57,699 nt of DNA. Source: a virus. The stretch lies in the IMG/VR virus record IMGVR_UViG_3300047547_000110, positions 1 through 57,699 of that record; one strand, 5' to 3'. The notes under the pieces are model-generated. The model was not told the origin of the DNA and did no database searches. It saw only the letters and a list, made by a program, of their open reading frames with translations. Positions within the stretch are counted from its first letter, which is position 1, and every line of letters begins with the position of its first letter. Below are positions 21,332 through 57,699 of this stretch, piece by piece. Made by a program: the position numbers and the translations under genes.

Positions 21332-22264
21332 TTAGCCGGGGATGACGCCCTTCAGCACAGCGAGACCCTTCTCGCTGAACAGAGCCAGACCGCAGTACCA
21401 CACCACGCGGGTGATGGACTCGTCCGCATCTTCCTTCTCGCCGACTTCCTTGATGTTGATACCGGCCGCCTTCTCAGCGGTCAGACCGGCGATACCGTGC
21501 GAACGGCTGCCGTCGTCGAAGGTACCCGCGAACACCGAGGTGGCATTCGACGCGGAACCCTGGGTCTGCGTGATCGGAATCCAGTCATTGCGGAAGATCG
21601 GGATGCCGCGGTAAGCCGGCACCTGACGACCGGACGCCATGGTGTACACATCGCCCGGCGAAGTGCCACCCAGGCTGCGGAGCAGCGCGAGGTACTTGCG
21701 GCGGGTGCGGCTGTGCATCATCAGGTAGTCCACCTGACCGTCCTTGTCGGTCACCAGGTCGATCAGCGCATCCAGGTCCTCGAAGGACAGGGCTGCACCG
21801 TTCGCGGCGCCGTTGTTGGCGGTGATGGTCTGACCCGCAGCAACCAGGCCGAACATGCCAGCCATGTTGTTGCCGGTGGCGTCACCGTTAATCATCTGGT
21901 CCTGGTACTTGCGACCGGCCGACTTTGCCTTGGAGGCGATCTGCACCGCCTTCTGGTCGTTGCCGTCGCCGGAGCGAGTGGCCTGAATCAGACCGTTGAC
22001 CTCGGCGTCGCCGATGATCGTGGTGAGGGTCGAGGTGACCTGCGTGAAGGTCGCAGCCGCCTTGGCAGTGATGGTCGAGCCCACGCCAGCGACTTGCACA
22101 TCGCCCAGCACGTTCTCGCGGTTGTACGCGAGGGCGTTGCCGTCGATGCCGTCGAAGGGCAGCAGTTCGAACATCTCGTTGACGGTGATGACGTTTTCGA
22201 TGACACCAGCGACGAGTTCGTCCTGGGCCAGCTTCGCCGACTCGGCGAGGGTTACGGAAGCCAT
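21332..22264 (-). CDS. Major capsid protein (HK97 fold)
   Basis: 310 aa, AGGAGAAA site. Features of short HK97-fold capsid proteins: N-arm ESAKLAQDELVAGVIENVI, E-loop region around GDVQVAGVGSTITAK, P-domain helix SFEDLDALIDLVTDKDG, and LMMHSRTRRKYLALLRS. No N-terminal delta domain, which agrees with a separate scaffold gene (24549). It forms the icosahedral shell. The gene is separated from scaffold and portal by the plus-strand cassette, so it needs its own promoter in the gap upstream. Confidence 0.92.
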   Translation of the reverse strand: MASVTLAESAKLAQDELVAGVIENVITVNEMFELLPFDGIDGNALAYNRENVLGDVQVAGVGSTITAKAAATFTQVTSTLTTIIGDAEVNGLIQATRSGDGNDQKAVQIASKAKSAGRKYQDQMINGDATGNNMAGMFGLVAAGQTITANNGAANGAALSFEDLDALIDLVTDKDGQVDYLMMHSRTRRKYLALLRSLGGTSPGDVYTMASGRQVPAYRGIPIFRNDWIPITQTQGSASNATSVFAGTFDDGSRSHGIAGLTAEKAAGINIKEVGEKEDADESITRVVWYCGLALFSEKGLAVLKGVIPG

Positions 22265-22524
22265 GTTGTTTCTCCTAACAGAGGTTGAGGGTTTGCTTGG
22301 TTTGGTGCCGGATCGCCCGACGATTCGACCCCGGGCCAGGCGTCACGCCTCTGCTGGGTCAGCGAGCGCGGTTCGCGGAGGTCATCCGCGCTCGCACGCT
22401 ATGGTTCGAAACTTTGCCATGACGGCACCAGCTCGTAACCCCATAAACCAGCACCAGCACAGCAGTATCTGAGCTATCTGAGTCCCTCAAAGTGCCAGGT
22501 CCGTACGTAGAAAGCTATGCGCAC

Positions 22525-22584
22525 CAAGGACTTAGAGCCATTTTGGACCGTACGAGCCTTGGACTCGGTGTTGTACCAGGAAAA
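22525..22584 (+). repeat. 60-bp conserved element, copy A
   Basis: By my count 47 of 60 bases match, without gaps, the reverse complement of 37316-37375. The first 16 and last 15 bases are identical (core GTTGTACCAGGAAAA at the end). CTTAGA motifs and an AT-rich block follow in the same order in both copies, so the homologous block is longer than 60 bp. Confidence 0.85.
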
Positions 22585-22759
22585 CACACGGCCACCGATT
22601 CAGGGCAAGGTCAGCCACGGCGTAACCGAGGTCTAGAAGCCTTAGATGGCCTAGAAGTCCTTATCCGGCTTAGAGTTACAGTCACTTAGAGACCTATATA
22701 AGGTTTAGATTACCTTAGATTAAAGGATAGATAAAATAAATAGAAAATAATTGCTTGAA

Positions 22760-22792
22760 GGGGCTCCCAAGCTAGGAGAACCCTGCCATAAT
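22760..22792 (+). promoter_or_regulatory. Box promoter 3 (GGGGCTCCCAA ... CATAAT)
   Basis: CTCCCA, 17 bases, CATAAT, then ATCATCCCAT as in box promoter 1. It drives the plus cassette embedded in the head genes and so ties it to the genes near position 1. Confidence 0.68.
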
Positions 22793-22829
22793 CATCCCAT
22801 CAACACGAAACACTGACTTGGAGCTCAAC

Positions 22830-23030
22830 ATGAACCGCCCTTTCGCCAACACCGCAGCCGCTGACTACGACGCCACTGTGGCAGCTGTTGAACTGCAGCT
22901 CGCCAAGCTGAAGGGCAAGATTGAAGCCCACAAGGCGAAGGCCAAGACCGACCCCAAGAATTGGGGCTATTCGGGTGACCTTCGCAAGGTTGAGTCCGAC
23001 CTCGCTGACCTTCTCGCCTTCCTCAACTAA
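22830..23030 (+). CDS. Small helical protein of the plus cassette
   Basis: 66 aa from ATG 22830 with GGAG upstream. Mostly one long amphipathic helix (YDATVAAVELQLAKLKGKIE), Lys-rich middle, then a short second helix. Could form a helical hairpin. No known family. First gene after box promoter 3. Confidence 0.75.
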   Translation: MNRPFANTAAADYDATVAAVELQLAKLKGKIEAHKAKAKTDPKNWGYSGDLRKVESDLADLLAFLN

Positions 23031-33665: not shown

Positions 33666-33741
33666 TGGTTGCGGAGGTGGGACTCGAACCCACGACCTCC
33701 GGGTTATGAACCCAGCGGGCTGCCAACTGCCCTACTCCGCG
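33666..33741 (-). tRNA. Initiator-type tRNA-Met (anticodon CAT)
   Basis: A 76-nt cloverleaf with CCA encoded. Anticodon loop TTCATAA. Three initiator hallmarks are visible: an unpaired C1-A72 at the acceptor end, three consecutive G:C pairs (29-31:39-41) in the anticodon stem, and a purine-pyrimidine 11:24 pair in the D stem (G:C). T loop is TTCGAGT. It should therefore be formylated and enter the P site, boosting translation starts. Lies between terminase and nrd genes on the late strand. Confidence 0.95.
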
Positions 33742-36201: not shown

Positions 36202-36807
36202 TCAGGCTTTATCCTCGCCCTCATTGCCCGCGTACTTGGCTTGCTGCTCGCGGGCAGCATCAGCCCAGGCCTTCGGATCGATCACGCCGGGCACGATGAG
36301 AACGCCGCCAGCACCGCCTTCGACTTCCACCTTGTGGTTCTCGCGGTACTTCTCAGGACGGGCACCCTTGAGGACCAGAGCCATCAGCGTGTCGCTGTAC
36401 TTGCGCACAGTCAACTGGCGCTGCTCGCCCGTCTCAGGGTCCACGACTGTGGTCGGCATGCCTTGGTAGATGACAGGCTCGTCGTAGCCATCCACGGCAC
36501 GCCGCATGGCCTCTGCCTCGATACGGTCAGCAGCCTCCTCGATCGCAATCGAGTAGAGCTCCTCAAACCACTCGGACTGCTCCCGCCACTTGTCGACCGT
36601 GGAACGCGATACGCCCGCAGCACGGCAGCCCTCAAGGACGATGCCACGATTGGCGAAGGTACGCAGGAAGAGGCGACGGCGTTCGATGCTCAGGCGTTCA
36701 GAAGCGGAGAGGTCGTCGAGTTCCCACTCCACCAGTTCGAGCTCAGACACAGGACCCCGCTCATGCAAGAAGTCCCGCTGCTCATCTGTCATGTTCTTGG
36801 CGGACAT
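36202..36807 (-). CDS. Terminase small subunit
   Basis: 201 aa from ATG 36807 with GGAGG 5 bases upstream (a GTG one codon earlier is also in frame). N-terminal helix-turn-helix: FANRGIVLEGCRAAGVSRSTVDKWRE (about residues 51-76). Central oligomerisation helices, C-terminal charged tail. Recognises the packaging site and recruits the large subunit. Its recognition site may be the repeats just upstream. Confidence 0.88.
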   Translation of the reverse strand: MSAKNMTDEQRDFLHERGPVSELELVEWELDDLSASERLSIERRRLFLRTFANRGIVLEGCRAAGVSRSTVDKWREQSEWFEELYSIAIEEAADRIEAEAMRRAVDGYDEPVIYQGMPTTVVDPETGEQRQLTVRKYSDTLMALVLKGARPEKYRENHKVEVEGGAGGVLIVPGVIDPKAWADAAREQQAKYAGNEGEDKA

Positions 36808-36938
36808 CACGTCCTCCTTTCAGTTTAATGGCTTACATGGTGTGATGGTAGCACTCCAGGTCGGGAGCGTAAGCCAGCAGCGATGGCGGAGGTCTCCCCT
36901 TGTTCCTTCGTGCGCGAAACTCACCGCCCTTGTTTCGC

Positions 36939-36999: not shown

Positions 37000-37315
37000 A
37001 AGGGCCTCACCCAACTGGGCCCTCGCGCGGCCACCGGAATCGACCACGGATGCTCCGTACGAGGGGAAACTCCCAATCGGCAGCCCTCAGAACAGCCCAT
37101 GGCGAGCGTCACGACCGAATCCATCAAAAGGCCTAGATTGCTATTTTTACTGGAAAGTTGTTTTTATAGGATTAGATTTATCTAAACCTTTATTATTTAA
37201 GGTCTAGATTAAAATAACTAATAAAAACAATAACTTATGATGCAATCTAAGGCATCTAAGCTGTCTAAGCCGAGTAGCCGTGCCGGAAAATCACCACTGA
37301 GAAAAGGGTATATTA

Positions 37316-37375
37316 TTTTCCTGGTACAACATCGAGCTCAAGGTCCAGATTGCTCAGATTGGCTCTAAGTCCTTG
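37316..37375 (-). repeat. 60-bp conserved element, copy B (inverted)
   Basis: Reverse complement of 22525-22584 at about 47 of 60 positions. On its own strand it is followed by CTTAGA motifs and AT-rich DNA, as in copy A, and it points toward the terminase operon. Confidence 0.85.
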
Positions 37376-37440
37376 ATTTACATAGCAAAAGCAGTACGAG
37401 CCTGGCCTTATAAGGGATCTAGATAGCTTAGATCGTCGCC

Positions 37441-37484
37441 GCCACAAACAAATGAGGGAGCAGCCGCGAAGCATGCTCCCTCAT
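37441..37484 (-). terminator. Terminator of the PrimPol operon
   Basis: An 11-bp perfect stem ATGAGGGAGCA/TGCTCCCTCAT (37452-37462/37474-37484), then TTGTTTG on the minus strand. Lies 28 bp past the PrimPol stop. Confidence 0.75.
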
Positions 37485-37511: not shown

Positions 37512-39848
37512 TCAATCAAGGGCATCGCGTGGCCAGTCAACCTTGCTGCCGAACCGAGCCTCGAGCAGACCGCGACAGTGACTCAGGGCAGGAATCTTCG
37601 ACGCAGACGCGCGGCCCATACGATCGACCTTGACCATGTAGTCCGTATCGTCAGGCTTGACCTGAGTGTTGGCCATCTCGCCATTGAGCAGCTTATTGAG
37701 GCGCATCCCGAATGCCACAGGATCAGCAGGACGGTAGACCCGCTGCTCCTTGGCGAACTCCAGATAATCCGCCCGCAGGTGTTCCTTAACCACCACGACG
37801 CCCGTCTCATGCCAGTCGCCACGCGCGTTGGGCAACATGCCGTCGAGCAACTTGTTGTACCACCAGCGCTCCACGTCGTCCATCGTCAAGACCTTCTGGT
37901 CGACGAGTGCCTTGGTAGCAGGTACCTCATCGCGAGGTGCCCATCCCTTGATGTCCCGGCTCAGCAGGTCAAACAACATACCCTCGATGCCACCCTCTTC
38001 GTAGAGCTGATCGTTCAGCGCCTTGAAGAAGGCCTTGTCGCCGCGCCTCTTGCTATTTACCGCGAAGACCGCAAAGCGGCGTTCACCGTCCAGGCCTGCA
38101 GGCACGACCCAGTCACCGTTGGCAGCCATGATGATGTGGACATGGTTCTTGCCCATCACAGCATCACGCCCCTTGCCTTCGTACGCGATCGTCGGCTCGG
38201 TCACCAACTGCTTGAGCTTCGCCTCGCCCGCCTTGTCACCGGCCCAGAAGGCTTCATCAGCGAACAGGCAGATGCAGTTCTGCAGGTGGGAATTGAAGCG
38301 GCCAACGAGGTGCTCCGGCGAGCTGATGTGGAGGCCGTGCGACCCAGCCAGCATTGCAGCTGCGCGGCCTAGCGTTCCCTTGCCGGTACCCTTCTCACCC
38401 TTGAAGCACATCGCGACCTCAGCAGCACGCGAAGGGTGTTGGACCATGTAGGCGAGCCAGTCAAGCACGTACTCATAATGCTCCTGCACGCCATCCACGA
38501 GGACGTCGCGGATGAGCTCCTTGAGCAGAGACCAGTCACGCTTGTTGGGCTGCACGGCCCAGCCGCGCCACAGGTTCAACCAGCCTTCATGCCCGCGCTC
38601 CGGGTCGAAGATGATGCCCTTGTATTGGCGACGATGCGGGTTGCGAATCCAGTAGGACGACCGAGTCACCAGCTTGTCATGAACCTCCACCAATTGGTTG
38701 CAGTAGAGGTTCTCGAAGTCTTCCTTCGTGCTGCGTTGAAAGAAGGGGCGGTTCAGAACCGGGTCCATCTCCTCAGTGAAGATGCGAAACTTGCCGCCCT
38801 CCATCACAACGCAGTGGGCTTCATTCATCTCCTCCATGACGGCGGCAATGCCTTCAGCCTTGGGCTCCGCACGAAGGGTAGCGTCGTCGACACCGTGGCC
38901 GTGCTCGGAGGGGTCCTCCCAGACGTCGAAGTCGTCCTCAGGGTCGGAGCGGACAACCTCGCCGCCCGCTTCCTGCACAACCTTGTGGAGGAACTTGACC
39001 GTGACAGGACGACCGCCCTTGCCCGAGGTGGCATGCAGCGAATCCCAGCGACGGCCGATAATCCATGCGTCATCTTGGTACTTCGCATCTTGCGTGGACC
39101 ACTCGATGAACTCCTGACGGCCTTCACCATTCGTAGCATGGTGGCACGCCATCATCAGGTCGCGCCACGTGTCATGATCTTGGAAGTCTTCGGCGTCGAG
39201 CTGCTCCAAGGTAGCGGCGAGCATCTCTGGTGTGAGCTCGCCGAGGCCCGCAGCATCACCGTGCGCCCGGGTTGGACGACGGCAGAGACGCAGGAGCGTG
39301 TCCGGCATCTCGGGCATGTCGTCCAGAGTGGGAGCTAGGTCGTCCCATTCATAGTGCCGACCGTTCGGGTGGACCGAGCCGGCGGATACGACTTGGCGGC
39401 CTTGCGACTTGAACTCTACTCCCGGATAGGCTTCCAGGGTATCGAGCAACGATACATCAGCCGGCTTGGTGAACCAGTAGTGATGCCCGCCTGAGCCTGT
39501 AATGGTATGAGGCGCAGAGGACAGGTCCAGCCCCACGTCGGCGACAAGTTCGGCCAGGGAGTCGCGGCCTTCGGGGAAGTTGCGCGGGTCGACGTCCAGC
39601 ACCATAATGGATGCGGGAAGACGGATGCCTGCATTGATGCCATCCCTATCAGCGAGTTGAATGATTCCATCAGAGTCGTATTCACGGGCTTGCCATGCGC
39701 CGTCCCTCGGCGTCTTGCCACGGTCACGGCCTTTGCTGTCGACCGCATTCCATGTATGGAGCGGGATCAGCTGCAGGCCTGCTTTAATGTACGCGCGCAT
39801 GTCCGCCACACGTGGGCGCAGGTTTTTCTTCTTCTTGTCGGTACTCAC
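37512..39848 (-). CDS. Bifunctional primase-polymerase / D5-type helicase
   Basis: 778 aa. N-terminal PrimPol domain: metal-binding LDVDP (84-88) and SGGHHYWF (119-126). A linker domain follows at about 215-300. C-terminal SF3/VapE-like helicase: Walker A KGEKGTGKGTL near 483-493, Walker B CLFADEAFW near 525, and an ANGDWVVPAGLDGERRFAVF sensor/arginine region. Lays primers and unwinds DNA at forks. Transcribed away from the plus-strand replication genes with a small RHH-like gene. Confidence 0.93.
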   Translation of the reverse strand: MSTDKKKKNLRPRVADMRAYIKAGLQLIPLHTWNAVDSKGRDRGKTPRDGAWQAREYDSDGIIQLADRDGINAGIRLPASIMVLDVDPRNFPEGRDSLAELVADVGLDLSSAPHTITGSGGHHYWFTKPADVSLLDTLEAYPGVEFKSQGRQVVSAGSVHPNGRHYEWDDLAPTLDDMPEMPDTLLRLCRRPTRAHGDAAGLGELTPEMLAATLEQLDAEDFQDHDTWRDLMMACHHATNGEGRQEFIEWSTQDAKYQDDAWIIGRRWDSLHATSGKGGRPVTVKFLHKVVQEAGGEVVRSDPEDDFDVWEDPSEHGHGVDDATLRAEPKAEGIAAVMEEMNEAHCVVMEGGKFRIFTEEMDPVLNRPFFQRSTKEDFENLYCNQLVEVHDKLVTRSSYWIRNPHRRQYKGIIFDPERGHEGWLNLWRGWAVQPNKRDWSLLKELIRDVLVDGVQEHYEYVLDWLAYMVQHPSRAAEVAMCFKGEKGTGKGTLGRAAAMLAGSHGLHISSPEHLVGRFNSHLQNCICLFADEAFWAGDKAGEAKLKQLVTEPTIAYEGKGRDAVMGKNHVHIIMAANGDWVVPAGLDGERRFAVFAVNSKRRGDKAFFKALNDQLYEEGGIEGMLFDLLSRDIKGWAPRDEVPATKALVDQKVLTMDDVERWWYNKLLDGMLPNARGDWHETGVVVVKEHLRADYLEFAKEQRVYRPADPVAFGMRLNKLLNGEMANTQVKPDDTDYMVKVDRMGRASASKIPALSHCRGLLEARFGSKVDWPRDALD

Positions 39849-40036
39849 TCGCGCACCCCCGCTTCCTGGAGGGACACGGGCTGACGGCCTGCCTCTTCAA
39901 TTAGAGCGCGAACTGCGTCGGCTTCTGTGACCTTCTCAGGGTCGGGACTTTCTCGCCGTAGCGACTCCAGCTTGCCGCGAATGAGGTCGCGGTGGGCATC
40001 GGAGAGTCGCAGCGACATCTGTTGGCTGAGTGCCAT
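39845..40036 (-). CDS. Small ribbon-helix-helix-like protein
   Basis: 63 aa. Start MALSQQMSLRLSD then two helices (HRDLIRGKLESLRR ... TEADAVRALIEEAG) fits an RHH (Arc/CopG-like) fold, typical of small DNA-binding regulators. ATGA overlap with the PrimPol gene. GGAG 7 bases upstream. It sits at the divergent control region and may regulate it. Confidence 0.75.
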   Translation of the reverse strand: MALSQQMSLRLSDAHRDLIRGKLESLRRESPDPEKVTEADAVRALIEEAGRQPVSLQEAGVRE

Positions 40037-40252
40037 GGGCGTGCTCCTTCTCAGTATGTGATCGGTTGGGCCTTGGGTGGGCCGGGACTGTCATCTTACC
40101 CGGACGTAATGCAATGCGAAACCGTCGGTTGACCCATCTAGGCCTTATAAGGCTCAGATGCCCTAGACCATTGTCCCGTGAACGTGGGTCCGCAGTGCAT
40201 GGCCTCGGTGTTACGATGAACATCCCTAAACCGCTCAACGAAGGAGAGCAAG
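40037..40252. other. Divergent control region
   Basis: 216 bp between the minus (PrimPol) and plus (replication) arms. Holds CCAACCGATCAC on the minus strand before the RHH gene, and CCTTATAAGG and CTAGA/CTCAGA motifs like those in the two large gaps. Both promoters should lie here; I cannot place the start points firmly. Confidence 0.6.
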
Positions 40253-47584: not shown

Positions 47585-47976
47585 CCCATTGCAAAGAACA
47601 CGGGGTCACTCTGCCCTGCCCTCTGTGCGCGCAGGACTTATGGCCCCTTCGCGACCTCAGAGCCGTGGCCGACTTCGCTGGCAATCCGCTCAATGGCCCT
47701 AATGGCCTTGTACCTGGCAGGAAGTACGTCCGTCTGTCCGACGTCGTGCGATCGATCGGCCGACGCTGGACTGAGCTGGAGAAGGTCAAGCTGACCGTGC
47801 TGGCTCCCTTGTACACGACCAAGAACGCCCTAGTGCGAGAAGCTCGCATTGGAGCGATAGATATTGGCAGGCTTGAGAAGGCAGCCCGCCAGGTTGCTAA
47901 GGGGTTCGAGACCGACTCCGATCCAATCGTGGAGCACTACATGCGTGCCATCATTGACGAGGAGTCGTCATGGTGA
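47581..47976 (+). CDS. Hypothetical protein with N-terminal Cys/His cluster
   Basis: 131 aa, ATGA overlap. N-terminal CKEHGVTLPCPLC could bind zinc. The remainder is helical with a basic middle. No family recognised. Last gene before a palindrome and the HNH gene. Confidence 0.75.
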   Translation: MTHCKEHGVTLPCPLCAQDLWPLRDLRAVADFAGNPLNGPNGLVPGRKYVRLSDVVRSIGRRWTELEKVKLTVLAPLYTTKNALVREARIGAIDIGRLEKAARQVAKGFETDSDPIVEHYMRAIIDEESSW

Positions 47977-47990
47977 CTCAACGGCATATC

Positions 47991-48022
47991 TCAAAAAGCA
48001 TTATGGCCATAATACTTTTTGA
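47991..48022. promoter_or_regulatory. 32-bp palindrome upstream of the HNH gene
   Basis: TCAAAAAG and ATTATGG are mirrored by CCATAAT and CTTTTTGA around 48006/48007, with one mismatch. AT-rich in a GC-rich genome. In RNA it forms a terminator-like hairpin; as DNA it could be an operator or a former endonuclease target. Confidence 0.7.
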
Positions 48023-48045
48023 GTATACGAATTGGAGAATCGCCA

Positions 48046-48621
48046 ATGCCAAAGAATGTATTGGATTTAGTGGCGCCGCTATTTGAAAGCGGAGTAGACG
48101 ACCTGGCAGAGTTGGCAGAGCAACTAACCGTGCAGCTGGGCTATACTCCGCGTCAAGCCACGCTGGCTAGCTATCGCTCACTATTCCGGCGGTTTGGGTC
48201 ATCATGGCGCGAAGAGCTGCGTAAGTCAAACACCCAATGGGGTCGAGATAACCGTCAAGCGCATAGCGAAGCTTCACGTAAATGGGCGGAAGCTTATCCA
48301 GCCAGGGCCCTACTTGGTCAAGCTCGGCAACGAGCCAAGCAGCGTGGTTTGCCGTGCGAATTGACTGAGGAATATGTGGAAAGCTTGCTACAGCCTGGTC
48401 GCTGTTCAGTGACTGGCATACTTCTCACGATGACGCGTGAAAATGATTGTGACTCGCTGAAAAATCCGTGGGCGCCGTCATTAGATCGTCTGGACCGCAA
48501 ACTTGGGTATGTTGAAGGCAATGTCCGGGTAACTTGCTGGCTTTTCAATCACATGCGATGCGACTACATGGATGAACATGTCCTGCAAGTCGCTCGCGCC
48601 ATAGTAGAGGCTAACAAATGA
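48046..48621 (+). CDS. HNH-type (homing-like) endonuclease
   Basis: 191 aa from ATG 48046 (GGAG 8 bases upstream). C-terminal part: CSVTGI, then PSLDRLDRKLGYVEGNVRVT and WLFNHM, the pattern of endonuclease VII/HNH-like free-standing nucleases. Its first 50 residues may be a DNA-recognition module. Base use is more AT-rich than its neighbours. The stop overlaps the polymerase start (ATGA). Likely a mobile gene placed upstream of polA. Confidence 0.85.
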   Translation: MPKNVLDLVAPLFESGVDDLAELAEQLTVQLGYTPRQATLASYRSLFRRFGSSWREELRKSNTQWGRDNRQAHSEASRKWAEAYPARALLGQARQRAKQRGLPCELTEEYVESLLQPGRCSVTGILLTMTRENDCDSLKNPWAPSLDRLDRKLGYVEGNVRVTCWLFNHMRCDYMDEHVLQVARAIVEANK

Positions 48622-57108: not shown

Positions 57109-57527
57109 GGCTATGGGAATGGCTGCGCGATGGACTGCGCGGCACCGAAGGCCTACACATGCGGCGGGTGGAGAACCTTGTGAGCGAAGGCGATCCAGAC
57201 GTTGACGGGTGTTGGCAAGGCCGGTATTTTGAGCTCGAGCTCAAGGGATGTGACCGGCCGGCGAAAGACGGGTCTCTGAGCTTTGACGTCCGCCAGTCGC
57301 AAGTCATCTGGCATCGCAGGCGCTGGAAGTGCGGCGGCAACATCTGGCTCTATATAAGAGTGGGTAAGGGGCGGGAGGTTCGGCGGTACCTGGTACCTGG
57401 AAACCTGACCGGGCGTGTGCAGGAAGGAGTGACTGAGGCCGAGCTAGCTCGCATGTCTATCCTCCCGCCTGGTCATACGGCTGCCGAGCTCCTAGCTCAA
57501 GCGGTAGACACTTCCAGCCTTAGATAG
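57093..57527 (+). CDS. VRR-NUC-like nuclease
   Basis: 144 aa, GTG start with GGAGG 7 bases upstream, overlapping the DHFR stop. GDPDVDGCWQGRYFELELKG supplies the D...ExK core of PD-(D/E)XK VRR-NUC enzymes; VRQSQVIWHRRRW and GGNIWLYIRV follow as expected. Likely a structure-specific (Holliday junction or flap) nuclease. Last gene of the plus arm before the terminator. Confidence 0.88.
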   Translation: MAREVRLWEWLRDGLRGTEGLHMRRVENLVSEGDPDVDGCWQGRYFELELKGCDRPAKDGSLSFDVRQSQVIWHRRRWKCGGNIWLYIRVGKGREVRRYLVPGNLTGRVQEGVTEAELARMSILPPGHTAAELLAQAVDTSSLR

Positions 57528-57538
57528 CTGGAAGCTAT

Positions 57539-57563
57539 AAGGGCCCTTCGGGGCCCTTTTTCT
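57539..57563 (+). terminator. Terminator (right copy)
   Basis: The same AAGGGCCC/GGGCCCTT stem and T-run as at 23-45, here seen in its true context after the VRR-NUC-like gene. Confidence 0.92.
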
Positions 57564-57656
57564 ATTGCCCTAAAAAAAAAGTTGCTGGAGGGGGCTCCCA
57601 ACGGTCGAAAACCCCCTTATAATCATCCCATACCAACCAAACATTGGAGAATAAAC

Positions 57657-57699
57657 ATGACGACCATCGCCAACACCATCCGCGCCGCCCTCGCTGCCG
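57657..57699 (+). CDS. Partial copy of the first gene
   Basis: First 14 codons of the gene at 140, cut by the window end. Part of the terminal overlap, not a separate gene. Confidence 0.9.
   Translation, partial: MTTIANTIRAALAA

What the first reader, a model, noticed from the sequence alone, without database searches (positions are those of the whole stretch)
22461..22830. Homologous non-coding element present twice in inverted orientation (22.5 kb and 37.3 kb)
The 60-bp block 22525-22584 matches the reverse complement of 37316-37375 at 47 of 60 positions without gaps, with identical ends of 16 and 15 bases. Each copy is followed, in its own direction, by about eight CTTAGA/CTAGA motifs and then AT-rich DNA (22625-22745; 37435 down to 37130). 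The copies point toward the plus cassette and the terminase operon. Such paired elements could be replication origins with initiator boxes, or control regions for two operons. No listed gene type explains them.
Basis: seen in the sequence. Interest (0 to 1): 0.8.

Follow-up and report, generated by a model that had tools for sequence, protein, structure and literature searches.

The report
Paired origin-like iteron arrays in phage
This bacterial virus and its relatives carry two inverted copies of a DNA element, each packed with about 15 copies of a short protein-binding-type repeat beside the most easily melted DNA of the genome, which makes them good, still untested, candidates for the sites where the virus starts copying its genome.

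Summary
The two copies are homologous over about 250 bp (local score 55; best of 300 shuffles 16). Both are conserved at the same two places in all 22 paired Bradleyvirinae genomes examined: E1 between the major-capsid gene and the plus cassette, E2 between the primase-helicase gene and terS. The 60-bp block and the CTTAGA motifs are one thing: a degenerate ~9-bp iteron, AAG(G/C)YYTAGA, in both orientations, found without bias in relatives only. In the window each copy holds 15 sites per 320 bp; the genome mean is 2.8, shuffles reach 10. In all seven complete genomes tested, the arrays are also the two least stable DNA stretches. RNA structure was tested and not found. A third, palindromic iteron site lies upstream of the operon for a small ribbon-helix-helix-like protein and the primase; a Rhodobacter phage shows the same layout with a different iteron. 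Best reading: an inverted pair of iteron-plus-unwinding-element replicators. The binding protein (RHH-like, primase C-terminus, or both) is unresolved. Multi-operator transcription control is the main rival. New variant of a known kind.

The parts
22465..22755 (+). Element copy 1 (E1): core + iteron array + AT-rich end, between the major head gene (21332-22264, -) and the plus cassette
   Evidence: Alignment across 22 genomes; 15 iteron hits per 320 bp; second least stable 100-bp window of the genome, 22651-22750
22465..22560 (-). E1 GC-rich core with six iterons in reverse orientation (22465-22477, 22474-22486, 22521-22533, 22529-22541, 22539-22551, 22548-22560)
   Evidence: PWM trained on relatives only
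22628..22722 (+). E1 forward iterons, three in contiguous 9-bp tandem (22628, 22637, 22646) then 22665, 22689, 22700, 22710
22690..22755 (.). E1 AT-rich, easily melted stretch (DUE-like)
   Evidence: AT 74-76% in 50-bp windows; stability ranking
22757..22795 (+). Promoter-like sequence of the plus cassette (GGGGCTCCC at 22760, CATAAT at 22787), conserved as GGGGCTCCC..TATAAT in relatives; also at 74/57591
   Evidence: inference, not shown to be a promoter
37128..37435 (-). Element copy 2 (E2), inverted relative to E1, between the primase stop (37512) and terS (36202-36810, -)
   Evidence: Alignment across 22 genomes; 15 iteron hits per 320 bp; least stable 100-bp window of the genome, 37141-37240
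37340..37435 (+). E2 core: six iterons in reverse orientation relative to E2 (37340, 37349, 37367, 37403, 37414, 37423) and one opposite (37392)
37243..37273 (-). E2 three contiguous 9-bp tandem iterons (GGCTTAGAC AGCTTAGAT GCCTTAGAT)
37180..37209 (-). E2 AT-rich inverted iteron pair ATCTAGACCTTAAATAATAAAGGTTTAGAT inside the least stable segment; conserved in relatives
37366..37378 (-). IHF-like site AATCAAGGACTTA (consensus WATCAANNNNTTR, recalled) with upstream T-tract; only genome-wide match; conserved in E2 of 20/22 genomes
40135..40169 (.). Third iteron site: palindrome CATCTAGGCCTTATAAGGCTCAGATG plus one more iteron, in the divergent intergenic region upstream of the RHH-like/primase operon
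   Evidence: conserved in near relatives, tandem form in others, absent in Bosavirus-type genomes
39845..40036 (-). Small ribbon-helix-helix-like protein (QQMSLRLS..TEADAVRALIEEA), GTGA overlap with primase start; candidate iteron-binding protein
   Evidence: Conserved in every element-bearing genome checked; fold by sequence pattern only, not confirmed by Pfam/NCBIfam/Foldseek
37512..39848 (-). Prim-Pol / PriCT-2 / DUF5906 primase-helicase; C-terminal ~95 residues predicted winged helix; candidate initiator

Best explanation
E1 and E2 are an inverted pair of replicator elements (origin-like). Each is an array of about 15 degenerate 9-bp iterons, reverse-facing in the core and forward-facing beyond it, next to a DNA-unwinding element. 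Proposed mechanism (inferred): a phage-encoded iteron-binding protein loads the arrays, bends or wraps them with help from IHF in the core, strains the adjacent AT-rich DNA so that it opens, and the linked Prim-Pol/helicase assembles there and primes synthesis. The binder is either the RHH-like protein encoded just upstream of the primase, the winged-helix C-terminus of the primase, or both. The palindromic site upstream of their operon would let the binder control its own supply. The two copies may act as two origins, or as an origin plus a distant enhancer/regulator as in phage P4 (ori1/crr). Shown: the iteron arrays, the instability, conservation, linkage and the third site. Inferred: protein binding, melting and initiation.
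For: Unbiased EM on relatives converges from all top words on one iteron for core and array. Cluster test in the window: 15 and 15 per 320 bp, mean 2.8, SD 1.85, next best 9; shuffle maximum 10. In 7/7 complete genomes the two arrays are the top two iteron clusters and the two least stable 100-bp windows, E2 first and E1 second. A Roseobacter phage with a 45% identical primase has a single array of 9-bp tandem GGCTATACAA iterons about 2 kb downstream of that gene, and it is the least stable window of that genome. Iteron variants change together in E1 and E2 of a genome (rho 0.67). RcRudolph has an array of AAGGTCGGACA iterons and the same iteron as a palindrome upstream of its RHH-like/primase operon. 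A clade with a diverged primase C-terminus (21% against 43-51% in similarly distant relatives) has different iterons, CTAAAT, downstream of the primase. IHF-like site. No consensus RNA fold.
Against: No replication data exist. The 9-bp spacing is not in phase with the DNA helix as in most iteron plasmids. GC-skew minima do not coincide with the elements consistently across relatives. AT-rich repeat arrays can also be multi-operator promoters, and E1 abuts a promoter-like sequence. The RcRudolph array is only the fourth least stable window. E1/E2 covariation rests largely on two diverged genomes and is not phylogenetically independent. The trans-acting protein is unproven, and in the CTAAAT clade both the RHH-like gene and the primase C-terminus differ, so that test does not separate them.
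Confidence: 0.55

Rival explanations
1. Transcription control regions. The arrays are multi-box operators for the phage RHH-like regulator, which switches the plus cassette (E1), the terS/late operon (E2) and its own primase operon (40135-40169). TAGA-type boxes would be read by the Q-x-S-x-R strand, as in the P22 Arc repressor.
For: Third iteron site in the promoter region of the RHH-like gene; strand residues Q6 and R10 invariant and S8 nearly so in 20 homologues; Arc reads a TAGA box with Gln9, Asn11 and Arg13 (PMC12645479); RHH-like gene present in every element-bearing genome checked; E1 lies directly upstream of a conserved GGGGCTCCC..TATAAT promoter-like sequence.
Against: About 15 boxes with DNA of the lowest stability in the genome is more than operators need. 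No sigma-70 promoter at E2 beyond shuffle expectation. RDJL Phi 1 has an array but no detectable RHH-like gene. The third site is missing in Bosavirus-type genomes that keep both arrays.
Confidence: 0.25
2. Partition or centromere-like arrays for maintenance as an extrachromosomal prophage, bound by the RHH-like protein as in RHH-type partition systems.
For: RHH-like protein plus direct-repeat arrays resembles plasmid parC-type sites (established knowledge); DLP4 is described as temperate (PMC6469090).
Against: No partition NTPase was recognised among the genes examined, though not every gene was scanned. A survey of 75 family genomes found no integrase or excisionase genes, supporting a lytic lifestyle (PMC11946847). 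Partition sites do not need a melted segment.
Confidence: 0.05
3. Packaging (pac) signals or capsid-linked sites, since E2 precedes terS and E1 precedes the major capsid gene.
For: Position of the two copies.
Against: Two inverted copies would give two packaging starts in opposite directions. In RDJL Phi 1 the array lies about 6 kb from terL. The unwinding element and the RHH/primase-linked palindrome are unexplained.
Confidence: 0.04
4. Structured leader RNA shared by two operons (for example a put-like antitermination RNA).
For: Two similar elements pointing into two operons.
Against: RNAalifold sense-strand consensus energy 0 for both copies, no better than column shuffles; no Rfam match; E1 lies upstream of the promoter-like sequence.
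Confidence: 0.02

Closest known systems
Phage P4 ori1 and crr (recalled; only their existence could be cited, PMC9942202)
   Same: Two separate cis sites with iterons for one phage primase-helicase; one site close to the primase-helicase gene; winged-helix-like C-terminus on the helicase
   Different: Prim-Pol type primase here; iteron sequence and 9-bp tandem spacing differ; an RHH-like gene is co-transcribed; no significant structural match of the C-terminal model to a P4 domain was returned
Iteron plasmid origins and oriLambda (reviewed in PMC5043065)
   Same: Arrays of replicon-specific repeats beside an A+T-rich unwinding element; IHF-type accessory site; inverted iteron pair upstream of the initiator operon, as recalled for plasmid rep operators
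   Different: Degenerate 9-bp iterons not helically phased, in both orientations, and two full copies 15-22 kb apart
P22 Arc operator / RHH multi-operator arrays (PMC12645479)
   Same: TAGA core; Q-x-(S)-x-R strand in the candidate binder
   Different: Arc has one 21-bp operator with two half-sites; here there are about 15 boxes per element; RHH fold not confirmed
RDJL Phi 1 single array (32.2-32.5 kb) and RcRudolph array (62.75-63.2 kb), found here; no description met in the papers searched
   Same: 9-bp tandem iterons in both orientations, homologous primase
   Different: One array per genome; iterons GGCTATACAA and AAGGTCGGACA

Membership tests
Iteron-type replication origin | Array of multiple repeats of one replicon-specific site | tested here: met
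Iteron-type replication origin | Adjacent A+T-rich unwinding element | tested here: met
   Two least stable windows in 7/7 genomes
Iteron-type replication origin | Iterons in phase with the DNA helix | tested here: not met
   Tandem copies at 9-bp spacing
Iteron-type replication origin | Linked initiator gene | tested here: inconclusive
   Primase-helicase gene adjacent to E2 in all genomes, but binding not shown
Iteron-type replication origin | Initiates replication / confers autonomous replication | not testable with these tools
   Needs experiment
Phage P4 ori1/crr system | Origin-binding winged-helix domain at the C-terminus of the primase-helicase | tested here: inconclusive
   AF2 model pLDDT 81 with winged-helix topology; only weak Foldseek hits, E>=0.19, none to a P4 protein among those listed
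Phage P4 ori1/crr system | Both cis sites required for replication | not testable with these tools
   Needs deletion mutants
RHH (Arc/CopG-type) operator array | Linked protein with RHH fold | tested here: inconclusive
   Sequence pattern and two predicted helices, but no Pfam, NCBIfam or Foldseek match
RHH (Arc/CopG-type) operator array | Boxes with TAGA core read by Q-x-N-x-R | tested here: inconclusive
   TAGA core in most iterons, Q and R invariant, S instead of N
Structured leader RNA | Conserved, covarying secondary structure | tested here: not met

The most novel reading that the evidence does not exclude
A two-component phage initiation system: an RHH-like iteron reader that autoregulates through a palindromic iteron operator, plus a Prim-Pol helicase. 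It acts on two inverted replicators 15-22 kb apart that communicate (looping or handcuffing) to time replication against the late operons lying between them. Its recognition code has changed repeatedly in concert across operator and array.
Probability: 0.2. Interest if true: 0.75.

Novelty: new variant of a known kind. Interest (0 to 1): 0.6.

Why it matters
The genome papers read for this group (DLP4, AXL1, Lydia) describe no origin of replication. If E1 and E2 are replicators, they give two precise 300-bp targets, one candidate operon for the trans factors, and natural variants (TAGA, TATAC, CTAAAT, GTCGGAC iterons) for testing specificity. A paired inverted replicator in a phage group reported as lytic would also be a useful comparison to P4 ori1/crr and to iteron plasmids.

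Tried and rejected
RNA structure on either strand and Rfam: negative. GC skew: the minimum is 2 kb from E2 in the window, but relatives do not agree. Sigma-70 promoter scan: nothing above shuffles at E1 or E2. Foldseek on the RHH-like monomer: no meaningful match. Pfam, NCBIfam and PHROGs on the RHH-like family and the RcRudolph protein: no RHH hit. YuA and Epa5, which have a helix-turn-helix-type gene before the primase: no array above background. An attempt to separate RHH-like protein from primase as binder through the CTAAAT clade failed because both differ there. Papers on P4 crr/ori1 beyond a mention could not be found in the library.

Full report
What the window is. The window is a complete circular phage genome: its ends repeat 182-183 bp, with one homopolymer difference. 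It belongs next to Pseudomonas phage PaMx74 and other Bradleyvirinae (Mesyanzhinovviridae) of Pseudomonas, Stenotrophomonas, Xanthomonas, Janthinobacterium and Variovorax.

The observation. The 60-bp block matches at 47/60 positions as stated, and it is part of the longest inverted repeat in the genome. With gaps, the two copies are homologous over about 250 bp (score 55, shuffle maximum 16). Copy 1 (E1) lies between the major head gene (21332-22264, -) and the plus cassette. Copy 2 (E2) lies between the 3' end of the primase-helicase gene (37512-39848, -) and terS (36202-36810, -). BLAST finds the E1 region in 33 phage records. In 22 genomes where both places could be read (GenBank and IMG/VR; some are near-identical to each other), both copies are present at the same places.

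What it is made of. I trained a motif by EM on the elements of 16 relatives, leaving the window out. Seeds taken from the most over-represented words (CTTAGAT, TCTGAGC, CGAGCCT and others) all converged on one degenerate motif, AAG(G/C)YYTAGA, with GTA replacing AGA in some sites. The GC-rich block and the CTTAGA array are therefore the same repeat. Scanning the window with that matrix gives 15 sites per 320 bp in each element; the genome mean is 2.8 (SD 1.85), the next best window has 9, and local shuffles reach at most 10. In E1 the core sites face backwards and the array sites forwards; in E2 the same order appears in mirror image. Part of each array is a strict 9-bp tandem.

The AT-rich ends. 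Nearest-neighbour stability was computed for seven complete genomes (window, PaMx74, AAT-1, DLP4, Donnerlittchen, Mallos, YB23). In every one the least stable 100-bp window is at E2 and the second is at E1. Inside E2 this segment holds a conserved inverted iteron pair, ATCTAGACCTT..AAGGTTTAGAT. The E2 core carries (A/G)ATCAANNNNTTR, which resembles the IHF consensus as I recall it, in 20 of 22 genomes. In the window it is the only such match in the genome, and it has an upstream A/T tract. E1 has a one-mismatch version.

Not an RNA. The sense-strand consensus folding energy is zero for both copies, and the antisense is not beyond shuffles. Rfam finds only the tRNA.

A third site and a linked gene. 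The same matrix finds a palindrome, CATCTAGGCCTTATAAGGCTCAGATG, at 40135-40160 with one more site behind it. It sits in the divergent region upstream of a 63-residue protein (39845-40036, -) whose stop overlaps the primase start. That protein has the pattern of a ribbon-helix-helix protein with Q-x-S-x-R in the strand. It is present in every element-bearing genome checked, including QDWS359 where BLAST first missed it. Arc of phage P22 reads a TAGA box with Gln9, Asn11 and Arg13 (PMC12645479). The RHH assignment rests on sequence pattern and two predicted helices only; no profile library or fold search confirms it. The third site is conserved near PaMx74, appears as a tandem pair in AAT-1-like, Mallos and V45iii phages, and is not found in Bosavirus-type genomes.

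Distant relatives. Roseobacter phage RDJL Phi 1 (primase 45% identical) has one array of 9-bp tandem GGCTATACAA repeats in both orientations about 2 kb downstream of the primase. It is the least stable segment of that genome, and no RHH-like gene was detected. Rhodobacter phage RcRudolph has an RHH-like gene before its primase. It has an array of AAGGTCGGACA at 62.75-63.2 kb and the same repeat as a palindrome, GTCCGACCTAAGGTCGGAC, upstream of that operon. A third clade (L044, L045, L046, L048) has CTAAAT repeats at the E2 place, no RHH-like gene found next to the primase in the contigs scanned, and a primase whose C-terminus has diverged to 21% while the rest stays near 70%. The recognition sequence thus changes between lineages, while repeats stay linked to this primase. 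Which protein reads it is not settled: RDJL Phi 1 favours the primase; the TAGA/Q-x-S-x-R match, the palindromes and the co-occurrence favour the RHH-like protein. The primase C-terminus is predicted as a winged helix, with only weak structural matches, among them archaeal and yeast origin-recognition proteins.

Mechanism. The best-supported reading is a replicator: bound iterons strain and open the adjacent unwinding element, and the primase-helicase enters there. Binding, melting and initiation are inferred. Two inverted copies could be two origins or an origin and a distant helper. The main rival is multi-box transcriptional control. E1 directly abuts a conserved GGGGCTCCC..TATAAT sequence in front of the plus cassette, so E1 may do both. 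Variants of the iteron differ between genomes but match between E1 and E2 of one genome (rho 0.67), consistent with one shared binder; the genomes are related, so this is supportive, not conclusive.

Known or new. The reports read for this group describe the insertion of the plus cassette, a promoter before it and a headful-type genome, but searches of their text found no origin or repeat element (PMC6469090, PMC9206674, PMC11946847). The parts are of known kinds (iterons, unwinding element, possible IHF site), described for plasmids and lambda in PMC5043065. The 9-bp non-phased spacing fails one usual feature of iteron plasmid origins, so it is not filed as a member of that class. The inverted pair in this phage group is a new variant.

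Noticed in passing
22265-22440: The region just upstream of the major head gene is strongly conserved (GGTGCCGGATCGCCCGAC, GTCACGCCT) and folds better than column shuffles as RNA on the minus strand (z about -3). Possible structured leader of the capsid mRNA, separate from E1.
   Followed up: partly
74-98, 936-944, 22760-22792: All exact GGGGCTCCC matches in the genome (the one at 74 recurs at 57591 in the end repeat) lie upstream of plus-strand genes; at 74 and 22760 a (C/T)ATAAT follows about 20 bp later. Looks like a phage promoter class.
   Followed up: partly
1-182 and 57517-57699: The ends of the window repeat each other (one A missing in a homopolymer), so the record is a closed circle read slightly past its start.
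   Followed up: yes
37502, 38901, 7670, 20359, 25447, 29140, 33898, 50962 and others: Motif TCGGCCACGG recurs about ten times across the genome and also flanks the elements in most relatives; meaning unknown.
   Followed up: no
37441-37483: Strong hairpin followed by T-rich sequence just after the primase stop (GAGGGAGC..GCTCCCTC), a likely terminator separating the primase operon from E2.
   Followed up: no
L044, L046, L048 upstream of the primase: The small gene before the primase differs between lineages: RHH-like here, an excisionase/MerR-like helix-turn-helix type in the CTAAAT clade, a repressor-like helix-turn-helix in YuA and Epa5. Family names here are by eye.
   Followed up: partly
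33666-33741: tRNA-Met (CAT) gene on the minus strand within the packaging/structural region.
   Followed up: no
47971-48070: Third least stable segment of the genome, just before the gene upstream of the DNA polymerase; no iteron cluster there.
   Followed up: no
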